A stretch of 64,000 nt of DNA from Dysidea avara (lineage: Eukaryota > Porifera > Demospongiae > Dictyoceratida > Dysideidae), in assembly GCF_963678975.1 (NCBI RefSeq), contig NC_089274.1, positions 22,157,133 to 22,221,132 on the forward strand, read 5' to 3'. Below are positions 1,308 to 63,789 of the stretch, one piece after another. Numbering within the stretch: position 1 is the first letter of the stretch; the number at the start of each line of letters is the position of its first letter. The notes under the pieces were generated by a model, which was not told the origin of the DNA, searched no databases, and saw only the letters and a program-made list of their open reading frames with translations. The translations under genes were made by a program, and so were the position numbers.

Positions 1308-1366
1308 ATGCTCTATTAGAAAACATCTGACTGCTCTATTAGAAAACATCTGACTGCTCTATTAGA
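1308..1366 (+). repeat. CTCTATTAGAG motif triplet (unit A)
   Basis: CTCTATTAGA starts at 1311, 1334 and 1357, giving three copies at exactly 23-bp spacing, each of the later ones preceded by CTGACTG. The same triplet with the same spacing is in unit B at 7106-7162, so it predates the duplication. Confidence 0.85.
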
Positions 1367-3097
1367 TTATCTTTCAGTGCTACCCTAATCATCTCTGCAG
1401 TGACAAGGTTTCACCAAAAGGCATGAGGCCTGTACAAGGATGCTTCTCAGATTAAAAAACTGACCATGTTCTCCTTTAATTCACTTTCGAGGAATCAATG
1501 TAAGTTAGTATATAGTTGTTAGCCATGCCATAAAATTAATTTTGCATCTGAAAATATGTCTCAACCATCAATTACTGAGAAGTTAAGAGGCCATTATGTT
1601 TTATTTTCAGTTATGTTCAGCCTGTTATATATGAGCAAAGGACAGTATAAGTAAGAAATGTCTCTGCAATTAATACATGGCCACAGAGAAGCCATAATGC
1701 ACTACCACAAATCAACACTTTGTACAGCATGCAAATAAAATGGCTAAGTCCAGGATGCATGTACTGTATGTACTGCAGTGAAAAATCAAGCCTGTAGCTT
1801 TAGTTGCAAACTCTTGCTATTATCGAGTTATGCTTGTCTGAAGGTATTAGTAGTAGATTATAAATTTGTATATGATCCCTAATACACAACTACGTAATAT
1901 AGAGAGAAATGTAACAATGCTTTCGATGATGTTATAGCAGAAAACTACAGGGTGTGGCAGTTGTAGTTATCACATGATATAGTGGCTGCACCTTTTACCA
2001 CACTATTGCAGTCTCACTGGTAATGGAGGTTTAGCATATTTATTTATTTGTTTGTAGCTTTATAGCATGCTCGCATAAATCACAATCACTGTTGAAGGCA
2101 TGCCAGCAACTGCTGTCTCGTGCTGGCATGCATGAGTGCATGACTAAACACAATGACAAGTATTAAAGTTGGTTGGAATGGGTTAGCTGCAGCAGCAGTA
2201 GCATGGGCACAGAACGTGAAATGTACAGGATTGAAATTATTAGTAAAGTGATTCCATAAGACCATGCATGTATTGTTAATTTTATGTTTCAGATCCCCTA
2301 CAGCACTGCTATGTCTCACCACCTAAATTCATGTAGTTTTGACCATGTTAATGTTAAAACCCAAAGCTGGACAGCTTTGATAAATATATAGTTAATCTGT
2401 TCTAGATCTACTATACTCTGCATGGCTGCCTTTAATTGCCTTCTTGCATATGCACTTAAACCATCATTCAGTAAAGAATCTGAATTTTGTTCTACAGGAT
2501 GTAAAATAAAGAAATATATATGTATTATCCCTCTGCCAATATTATATGCAACCATAGAGTTGAGACATAACACACCATGGTGTGATTTAAGGTAATAGAA
2601 AACAGGTCCACTTTATCAAAGATACTACTTTTGCATGAAAAATTTGATACATAGCTGCAGTAAGGACAGTAAACCATATAGCTGCAGTGATGTTGATAGG
2701 TATACCAGTAGTCAAAACTATATACTCATGTTCCATATGGGACCTGATTGTGTCACAACTTAGTGCATGAGGATATGTATAACTATACACTATCTGCATG
2801 GTTATATATACATATATCTTATGGATATCATAGTCTAATAGCATGCGTGCAGCTGTAGTTTATATGCATTGGAACTTTCAGATGTCACCTCTTGAAGTAC
2901 TACAACAATGTGTATTTATAAGTCACTGACATCATTACACACTTAATCTATATACATAGTGCCTAAAAATTAAGTATAGCTATATAAAAGTATACACAAT
3001 TTATATTATTTAATACTTATGAGAATATATACATGCAGTAAATATATTTGCTATTAGCTATAATATGCCTGCTTGGTTGTCACAAGTTACAAAATTA

Positions 3098-3961
3098 TCA
3101 CTCAGTTGCACAGTTGAAAGGACGTATTTTCATTTCTATCCAATTTGGGTTATAGTAATTGCCTCCAAAGCTGATTAATCCATATTGAGCAGGATTGTAC
3201 TGAGAGTTGAGATTGATGTTCCAACATTGGTTATACCACCATCCTCCATTACCAGTAGCACTGCCAACTTTCATTGCACAGTTTCCTGTCCTCCAACTGT
3301 CATTGTCATTATCATATGTGCTGAACTTCATGCCATTGAGGTAGTTTTGTGTTATGAATGGGTCAGAAAAAGTTTTACCGGTAAACCCATCAATAGTCAG
3401 TGGGTATTCTTCACAAGCACTTCCTACTCTAAACAGATTGTAGTGAAGGTAGGATCTGGTCTTGTTGGGAAATTCAAAATCCACTCTTAGTTCCCATTGG
3501 CCAGTTTGTGTAAGACAGTTCATAGTCTTGAGCCCATACCAGAATTCACCATTCAGATCTCCAAATCCTTTCTCATAGTCAGCCCATGATTGGTTAAAAT
3601 TCTCAGATCCATCTTTCCTTCTCTGTATCACTGTCCACCCTCCATTTGTTGTTGTAGTGTCACAGTACATATCAACTATTGATAGTCTCCCACTACACCA
3701 GCTGTTCATTTTGTATATGCCAGATGGTGATTGGTCAAAATTATTCTCCTTAAAACTACAGCAGTTATCCGAAGGTGGCAAACCACAAGGATATTGATGT
3801 TTTTCTGTATTTCTCTTAATTTCATTTATTTGTTGGTCACAGTATGTACTAACAATTATTCCAGTAGTGAACAATGTAAAGTGTTGTTGCCATTGTATAG
3901 TGAGATTTATCTGTATAGAATTATAGGATTCACATGTAGAGCTTATCTTCTGTGATACCAT
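3098..3961 (-). CDS. Fibrinogen-related domain (FReD) protein, copy 1, with frameshifted signal peptide
   Basis: This encodes a C-terminal fibrinogen (FReD) domain, the fold of ficolins and tachylectin-like lectins, which are usually secreted and bind acetylated glycans through a Ca2+-stabilised lobe. The domain shows the GGWTVIQRR-DGS core, GEFWYGL, the STYDNDND calcium-site motif and GGWWYNQCW. From CDQQINE onward it aligns end to end with the copies at 9493-10302 and 16707-17513. The N-terminus is odd. The start codon homologous to copy 2 is at 3893-3891, but 14 bases present in copy 2 are missing between 3872 and 3873, so that start reads into a stop after 14 codons. The FReD frame remains open upstream to an ATG at 3961, giving 287 aa without a convincing signal peptide. 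It is probably a recent pseudogene or a non-secreted variant; an upstream 5' exon cannot be excluded. Confidence 0.75.
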   Translation of the reverse strand: MVSQKISSTCESYNSIQINLTIQWQQHFTLFTTGIIVSTYCDQQINEIKRNTEKHQYPCGLPPSDNCCSFKENNFDQSPSGIYKMNSWCSGRLSIVDMYCDTTTTNGGWTVIQRRKDGSENFNQSWADYEKGFGDLNGEFWYGLKTMNCLTQTGQWELRVDFEFPNKTRSYLHYNLFRVGSACEEYPLTIDGFTGKTFSDPFITQNYLNGMKFSTYDNDNDSWRTGNCAMKVGSATGNGGWWYNQCWNINLNSQYNPAQYGLISFGGNYYNPNWIEMKIRPFNCATE

Positions 3962-63110: not shown

Positions 63111-63476
63111 GTCATGATTGTACAAAAGGAGTTAACAAACAAGTACACACAAAAATTTGGAATTTTCAACTAGAGTATGGACCATAGCACATCGATAAAA
63201 AGTATACAAGCTGGAGTAGTGCATGATATTAAATCACAGTAAAACAATAAGAAGTGTTATATCCCTACTGTGCATTTCAGTTAAACAATAAATGTCATAG
63301 AAGTTGGTGACAACAAGATAAGAAGGCAGCTGTTACTGTAGAAGTACATGTGCACATTATGTTTTTTGATTCTCTCTAGCACACTGACCATATGGACATT
63401 TACAACTTTCTTGCGCATAGAAACAGCACTGTACACCTCTCCTTCAACCAGGGATATGTTCCTACTGGACCTGGTG

Positions 63477-63556
63477 AGTGTGCATGCGTGTGCGTGCGTG
63501 TGTGCGTGCGTGCGTGCGTGTGTGTGTGTGTGTGTGAGAGAGAGAGAGAGAGAGAG
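63477..63556. repeat. TG/TGCG tract with GA tail
   Basis: Mixed TGCG and TG units followed by about 10 GA units; the same TG-then-GA order as 56421-56647. A partial motif TTCTATTAGAA follows at 63645-63655. Confidence 0.93.
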
Positions 63557-63789
63557 AATGAGAATGTTGCTGTTAGCCACACTACCAACAAGTGGTGTGT
63601 TACCTGGCCCACTGTTCACACACTCGCCTCAGGTTTACTGACTGTTCTATTAGAAAATGCCAATCGTTTTCTGTTAATTAGTCCCTAAAGCTAACACAAT
63701 GCCAGATTCCCACATATACCAAGTGTTTCCAAATTTATATGATGGCATAATTGCCATGTCCCCAGTGTATGAGGTGTGCATGTGCATGC

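What the first reader, a model, noticed from the sequence alone, without database searches (positions are those of the whole stretch)
1308..63655. A palindromic motif recurs at about 17 loci across transposon superfamilies
The core CTCTATTAGAG, usually within GACTGCTCTATTAGAGTA and often followed by TCTTGATCTT, occurs about 28 times in both orientations. Core starts are 1311, 1334, 1357, 7106, 7129, 7152, 13068, 13089, 21270, 29283, 29308, 29849, 29876, 30531, 38020, 38037, 39722, 39747, 40998, 41025, 52635, 54845, 54866, 58290, 61399, 61428 and 63645, plus decayed sites near 51981 and 57480. It typically comes as doublets or triplets 17-29 bp apart. Most hAT-like elements here contain it, but so does the Harbinger-like MITE at 52380-52765, and several copies are outside any element I can delimit. 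The conserved core while the spacers drift suggests a bound site. hAT transposases are known to bind repeated subterminal sites, but the sharing by a Harbinger-like element argues for a wider cause: a host factor site, a silencing trigger, or a tiny mobile module.
Basis: partly seen in the sequence, partly recalled or inferred. Interest (0 to 1): 0.78.

Follow-up and report, generated by a model that had tools for sequence, protein, structure and literature searches.

The report
One motif shared by unrelated transposons
In what is probably a sponge genome, one DNA motif about 29 letters long sits inside several unrelated kinds of small mobile elements and recurs, exactly or nearly so, over a hundred thousand times, which suggests a shared binding site that such elements have come to carry.

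Summary
The shared unit is not just CTCTATTAGAG but a sharply bounded ~29-bp unit, TGACTGYTCTATTAGAGTATcTcGATCTT, single or in tandem, without shared flanks. Genome-wide, GACTGCTCTATTAGAGTA occurs 31,155 times exactly (reversed control 0); a 20-mer at up to 3 mismatches 124,280 times (control 25).

It lies inside structurally unrelated non-coding elements: hAT-like MITEs of several kinds (8-bp duplications), a Harbinger-like MITE family (35 of 35 copies examined), and a minisatellite-bearing family without visible terminal inverted repeats (16 of 16; Helitron/HINE-like is a guess). The non-coding ends of 6 of 6 intact coding hATs sampled lack it. Pooled over three families, the unit changes more slowly than the rest of the element: 28 changes vs 46 expected on terminal branches, 3 vs 13 on internal ones; single families are mostly not significant.

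Best reading: a DNA-protein site used by many element families regardless of their transposase. The protein is unknown and no binding was tested. The genome is probably Dysidea avara (inferred); the motif also occurs in sponge-like DNA on a Lamellodysidea metagenome contig.

The parts
29641..30012 (+). hAT-like MITE (family F1) with inverted ends CAGGGCCGCCCA and 8-bp duplication GATGGTAA; holds units 29844-29861 and 29871-29888
40879..41262 (-). second F1 copy; duplication not intact; units 40996-41013 and 41023-41040
52380..52765 (-). Harbinger-like MITE (family F4), ends GGCCATCATTATT, TAA/TTA duplication; one unit 52633-52650 with tail to about 52622
37942..38273 (-). hAT-like element with ends CAGGGGCGGAT (relative in L012 has 8-bp duplication GCCTCCTC); units 38018-38035 and 38035-38052
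60849..61677 (+). hAT-like element by its ends (CAGTGGCGTAG ... CTACGCCACTG), seen as two aligned pieces with L017; flanking duplication not clear; units 61394-61411 and 61423-61440
39520..39970 (+). part of a repeat family (1137 first-look candidates, ends not found); units 39717-39734 and 39742-39759
58160..58486 (+). old, decayed repeat family (279 first-look candidates, identities 68-85% among the 39 other best matches); unit 58285-58302
1306..1369 (+). triplet in a segmental duplication that also holds a fibrinogen-related gene
7101..7164 (+). paralogous triplet of the same duplication
13063..13101 (+). doublet, carrier not delimited
21268..21285 (-). single unit, carrier not delimited
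29281..29323 (-). doublet, carrier not delimited
30526..30568 (+). unit with a weak second unit, carrier not delimited
54840..54878 (+). doublet, carrier not delimited
57492..57509 (-). decayed single unit
63640..63657 (+). decayed single unit

Best explanation
The motif is a duplex DNA site of about 29 bp for a sequence-specific protein of the cell (host-encoded, or encoded by some element and acting in trans). Many unrelated non-coding element families carry it as an internal module: hAT-like and Harbinger-like MITEs and a third class without visible terminal inverted repeats. Shown: the sharply bounded unit, its abundance, its presence in every examined copy of three structurally different families, its absence from the sampled ends of six coding hATs, and a moderate slowing of change relative to the rest of the element. 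Inferred: that a protein binds it; that this helps the element multiply or be tolerated (open chromatin, protection from silencing or similar); that families gained it by capture or recombination and then spread it. After insertion most copies seem to decay, perhaps a little more slowly than their flanks.
For: Unit with near-zero information in its flanks over 75 modules. Carriers with different transposition signatures: 8-bp duplications in 21 of 22 F1 copies, TTA/TAA duplications in F4, sharp 3' end after a hairpin and no visible inverted ends in F3. Always internal, never in the terminal repeats of the elements with known ends. Absent from the ends of 6 of 6 coding hATs with clear ends and duplications. 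Pooled odds ratio for change, unit against rest: 0.58 on terminal branches (28 observed, 46.1 expected, p 0.0056), 0.21 on internal branches (3 against 12.7, p 0.0065); stratified by base 0.59 and 0.23. Six modules folded as single strands show no consistent structure, which favours a duplex site.
Against: No binding data. In single families most tests are not significant (only F4 internal, p 0.012), smaller first tests were not significant, and windows elsewhere in F3 and F4 reach the module's terminal rate in 54 of 716 and 24 of 282 cases. Pairs of related elements show no constant advantage of the module (for example 0.80-0.83 against 0.84, 0.94 against 0.95). In the duplicated fibrinogen-gene unit the triplet is not clearly better kept than its flanks. 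A distant F3 relative (L021) has no unit. Most Harbinger-like elements found lack it (7 of 8). No gene or chromatin data.
Confidence: 0.5

Rival explanations
1. Frozen mosaicism: small elements are often assembled from pieces of others by nested insertion, template switching and recombination. The unit belonged to an early, very successful family, so it was common and was picked up by others by chance, without a function of its own.
For: The unit is so common (one per about 4.4 kb) that chance capture is plausible. A coding hAT (E5) lies between motif-bearing flanks, so elements do nest there. Weak conservation in single families.
Against: Flanks of the unit are not shared between families; chance capture should bring longer and varying pieces. 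Pooled slower change, above all on internal branches.
Confidence: 0.22
2. Subterminal binding site of hAT transposases (recalled for Ac, Hermes and others), spread mainly by hAT-like elements and only by accident elsewhere.
For: Most carriers with clear ends are hAT-like (7 of the 8 motif-bearing elements with end and duplication evidence), and hAT genes abound (1875 first-look candidates).
Against: One internal cluster in one orientation, not at both ends. Ends of 6 of 6 coding hATs lack it. The Harbinger-like family and the third class carry it in all copies examined. The coding partner of F1 was not found, so this is not closed.
Confidence: 0.13
3. A tiny mobile module that itself inserts into elements and genes.
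For: Sharp borders and many contexts.
Against: No presence/absence difference among copies of three families; no duplication at its borders was seen; change in unit number in related elements looks like ordinary tandem change.
Confidence: 0.08
4. A structure formed by a single strand (RNA or DNA), the tandem palindromes pairing with each other.
For: One of six modules folds at z -1.99.
Against: The other five range from z -1.60 to +2.16. Half of the modules are single. No Rfam match in the window.
Confidence: 0.04

Closest known systems
Placozoan Mutator terminal repeats with a loop-anchor motif (PMC12221973; passages and section 7 seen)
   Same: A motif carried by transposons in an early-branching animal and proposed there to be recognised by an architectural protein
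   Different: There the motif belongs to the ends of one superfamily; here it is internal and shared by unrelated families. The same paper reports no chromatin loops in the sponge Ephydatia, so looping is not claimed here
CENP-B box (recalled; search listing only)
   Same: A short protein-bound motif found in otherwise unrelated repeats
   Different: 17 bp and mainly in centromeric satellites (recalled); here about 29 bp, dispersed, in mobile elements
Subterminal repeats bound by hAT transposases (recalled)
   Same: Short repeated site inside hAT-type elements
   Different: Not at both ends, missing from six coding hATs, present in non-hAT families
HINE / DINE-1 non-autonomous Helentrons (PMC4067079, passages)
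   Same: Third family: tandem repeats inside, stem-loop near the 3' end
   Different: Subterminal inverted repeats and TT target not shown; 5' end not fixed

Membership tests
hAT superfamily (F1 MITE) | 8-bp target site duplication | tested here: met
   21 of 22 copies
hAT superfamily (F1 MITE) | Short terminal inverted repeats of the CAGGG type | tested here: met
hAT superfamily (F1 MITE) | Mobilised by a hAT transposase; coding partner known | not tested
   hAT genes exist, partner not found
PIF/Harbinger superfamily (F4 MITE) | 3-bp TTA/TAA duplication | tested here: met
   readable at fixed offsets in 18 of 35 copies; others slid or decayed
PIF/Harbinger superfamily (F4 MITE) | Terminal inverted repeats | tested here: met
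   GGCCATCATTATTAT at both ends
PIF/Harbinger superfamily (F4 MITE) | Coding partner with DDE_Tnp_4 and the same ends | tested here: inconclusive
   1111 first-look domains; three regions fetched, no element ends found
HINE/Helentron (F3) | Stem-loop near the 3' end | tested here: met
   7-bp stem, then TTGA and a T; 16 aligned copies diverge after that point
HINE/Helentron (F3) | Insertion in TT or T-rich target without duplication | tested here: inconclusive
   T follows TTGA in 16 of 16; 5' end not fixed
HINE/Helentron (F3) | Subterminal inverted repeats | not tested
   5' end not fixed
Canonical Helitron (F3) | 3' end CTRR | tested here: not met
   copies end CTTGA or CTTG before divergence
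hAT transposase binding site (the motif) | Present in the ends of coding hATs | tested here: not met
   0 of 6; the six are not shown to be partners of the carriers
Protein-bound site (the motif) | Changes more slowly than its surroundings | tested here: met
   pooled only; single families mostly not significant
Protein-bound site (the motif) | Bound by a protein in cells | not testable with these tools
   needs pull-down, footprints or DAP-seq

The most novel reading that the evidence does not exclude
A single host factor of dysideid sponges, with a CTCF-like number of long sites, licenses or protects mobile DNA. Families with different transposition chemistries have each taken up its site and depend on it, so that more than 120,000 sites form a transposon-built protein-binding network in an animal lineage where no loop-anchoring factor is known.
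Probability: 0.2. Interest if true: 0.88.

Novelty: new variant of a known kind. Interest (0 to 1): 0.64.

Why it matters
Binding sites spread by one transposon family are well known (recalled). One long site shared, without its flanks, by unrelated families with different transposition mechanisms would mean that mobile elements converge on one cellular factor. It gives a direct handle for finding that factor and for asking what limits the success of non-coding elements. In an early animal lineage it may also expose an important unnamed DNA-binding protein.

Tried and rejected
Rejected: chance; one ancestral family for all copies; a hAT transposase site as the whole cause; sites outside repeats, for the five sites searched with flanks; a consistent single-strand fold in six modules; a known RNA family at gathering score in the window.

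Unfinished or fruitless: a genome search with the L001 element, a genome-wide doublet count and a count of the full 29-mer did not complete. Three coding Harbinger regions gave no element ends, so absence of the unit from coding Harbingers is not shown; one of them (L116) has two degenerate units (4 mismatches) about 1.9 kb from the domain. The duplication-and-inverted-end scan is not specific by itself: for 8-bp duplications it gave 75 candidates and its control 160, mostly tandem arrays; with the motif inside, 7 against 0. The pattern searches list only the first places, so orientation and distance to genes could not be tested. Literature: the sequence terms gave 14 papers, none by title about such a motif (listing only); sponge genome + MITE + hAT gave one review (listing only); some searches gave leads (listings; four papers looked into: PMC12221973, PMC12909245, PMC7313196, PMC4067079, passages, plus one section of the first). 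The viral collection had no exact match.

Rows dropped before counts: L008 (overlaps L007) from then on; L011 from the F3 alignment; in the final conservation tests CpG columns, homopolymer runs, element edges and bases near gaps. Without removal of bases near gaps F4 gives terminal p 0.035 and internal p 0.017.

Full report
What was claimed.

Check. All 27 listed positions are real at up to two mismatches, and one of the two decayed sites is. Chance is excluded in the window. The window lies in a eukaryotic genome of 550.8 Mb in 108 contigs. There GACTGCTCTATTAGAGTA occurs 15,644 + 15,511 times and its reversed control 0 times. A 20-mer at up to 3 mismatches occurs 62,296 + 61,984 times against 10 + 15, one per about 4.4 kb. 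In 20 stretches of 10 kb taken at round coordinates I found 55 sites at up to 3 mismatches, in 16 of 20; five Markov controls gave 0 or 1.

The unit. Contexts of the last unit of 75 modules give TGACTGYTCTATTAGAGTATcTcGATCTT with near-zero information on both sides. The tail is clearest on the last unit of a tandem. Of 76 modules 38 are single, 35 double and 3 triple. Spacings are mostly 17, 20-21 and 23-27 bp; copies of one family are not independent, so no helical phasing should be read into them.

Carriers, hAT-like. Seven elements with an exact 8-bp duplication and inverted ends hold the unit, with five kinds of ends (CAGGGCCGCCC, TAGGGACCCGC, TAGRCCCCRGC, CAGGGGCGGAT, CAWRGGCGGTG). Three of the seven are in loci fetched for the motif. 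For F1 (window 29641-30012) there are 2065 first-look candidates. All 20 fetched copies have perfect 8-bp duplications; with the two window copies 21 of 22 do, and 22 of 22 carry the doublet.

Carriers, Harbinger-like. F4 (52380-52765) has 859 first-look candidates. I fetched 14 and then 20 copies; with the window copy 35 of 35 carry one recognisable unit at the same place, two of them without part of the tail and one without a core base. TTA or TAA duplications are readable at fixed offsets in 18 of 35; some copies share flanks. Of 8 elements found by the 3-bp test, 7 lack the motif, so it is not a general Harbinger feature.

Carriers, third class. F3 has a 31-bp minisatellite (about 114 units in L018), then the doublet, then about 760 bp that end sharply after a hairpin and TTGAT, where 16 aligned copies diverge. 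It has 5581 first-look candidates; the 40 main matches all start at base 1 or 2 of a query that begins before the unit; 16 of 16 aligned copies carry the doublet. I saw no terminal inverted repeats, but the 5' end is not fixed. It resembles HINE/Helentron elements as described in PMC4067079 (passages), yet the CTRR end of canonical Helitrons is not met and a retroposon is not excluded. L021, a relative at 67%, has no unit.

Other sites. The other undelimited window sites were not searched. Candidate numbers are first-look numbers, not confirmed copies.

Coding relatives. First-look candidates are 1875 for the hAT dimerisation domain and 1111 for DDE_Tnp_4, 150 scored of each. Six hATs with long open frames all show inverted ends and an 8-bp duplication; none has the unit in the fetched ends (0 of 6). 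One (E5) has units just outside both ends. None of the six is shown to be the partner of a carrier. Three Harbinger regions were inconclusive.

Conservation. Changes were counted on trees, leaving out CpG, homopolymers and bases near gaps. Terminal: F1 4/1210 vs 46/5315, F3 2/684 vs 91/10436, F4 22/898 vs 368/10347. Internal, same denominators: F1 1 vs 11, F3 0 vs 30, F4 2 vs 106. Pooled odds ratios: 0.58 (p 0.0056) and 0.21 (p 0.0065). Stratified: terminal 0.59 by base or by neighbours (p 0.008, 0.009), internal 0.23 by base (p 0.009). Alone only F4 internal is below 0.05 (p 0.012). Equal-length windows elsewhere reach the module's terminal rate in 0 of 138 (F1), 54 of 716 (F3) and 24 of 282 (F4), and its internal rate in 17, 244 and 2. 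Smaller first tests were not significant, and pairs of related elements gave mixed results. So the effect is moderate. The stronger internal signal would fit a value to multiplying lineages more than upkeep by the host after insertion; this is inference. In the duplicated fibrinogen-gene unit the triplet is not clearly better kept than its flanks.

Species. Fifteen contigs (lengths) sum to about 549.8 of 550.8 Mb. Dysidea avara is given as 575 Mb with 15 chromosomes in PMC12909245 (passages). I infer that species; no named record was compared. One of four exact 18-mer matches in the prokaryote collection (about what chance would give, my estimate) sits at the AT-rich end of a contig of MAG SP12ARB1, which comes from a Lamellodysidea sponge sample (PMC7313196, passages). 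That end has one long match in the window genome, 77% over about 590 bp, besides 18 short repeat matches, so it is very probably sponge DNA. Both genomes have units upstream of the matching stretch, at places that do not align clearly. This is one case only.

Mechanism. Carriers with different transposition signatures, and coding hAT ends without the unit, point to a factor other than one transposase. I favour a sequence-specific protein site of the cell used by many families (0.5), before chance mosaicism (0.22) and a hAT transposase site (0.13). Six modules showed no consistent single-strand fold. A precedent for transposon-borne architectural motifs is the placozoan Mutator case in PMC12221973 (passages); the same paper reports no loops in the sponge Ephydatia (section 7), so looping is not claimed.

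Limits. Copies were sampled as best matches to motif-bearing queries. Nothing here tests binding. That the motif is not in print rests only, in an open-access library without preprints.

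Noticed in passing
window 3098-3991, 9493-10431, 16707-17528, remnants 37287-38597: Tandem family of fibrinogen-related genes (Fibrinogen_C in the two frames scanned) with duplicated surroundings and a broken copy
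   Followed up: partly
window 46786-47484 (-) and 47684-48469 (+): Retrotransposon-like reverse transcriptase and integrase frames on opposite strands, near long inverted repeats, as if rearranged
   Followed up: no
L018:3351-6840, also L011, L012, L020, L021: Arrays of a 31-bp minisatellite, up to about 114 units, inside a dispersed element family with thousands of first-look candidates
   Followed up: partly
L075 (JACOMT010000094.1), about 4400-5370: Contig of a Rhodobacteraceae MAG whose AT-rich end matches the window genome at 77%: probably sponge DNA joined to a bacterial contig
   Followed up: yes
window 19365-19744 and 42261-42609: Harbinger-like MITEs with ends GGCCACTCCAA and TTA duplications that lack the motif
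   Followed up: no
window 35248-36357: Open frame with sulfotransferase domains (Sulfotransfer_1, Sulfotransfer_3)
   Followed up: no
L020:6516-6874 and relatives in L011, L018, L021, L024: Foldback element beginning TATCTAATCCAAAACAGCC, often next to the minisatellite family
   Followed up: no
window 31912-32413, 36429-37025, 56301-56714, 59931-60463: Long microsatellites that give spurious open frames in several reading frames
   Followed up: no
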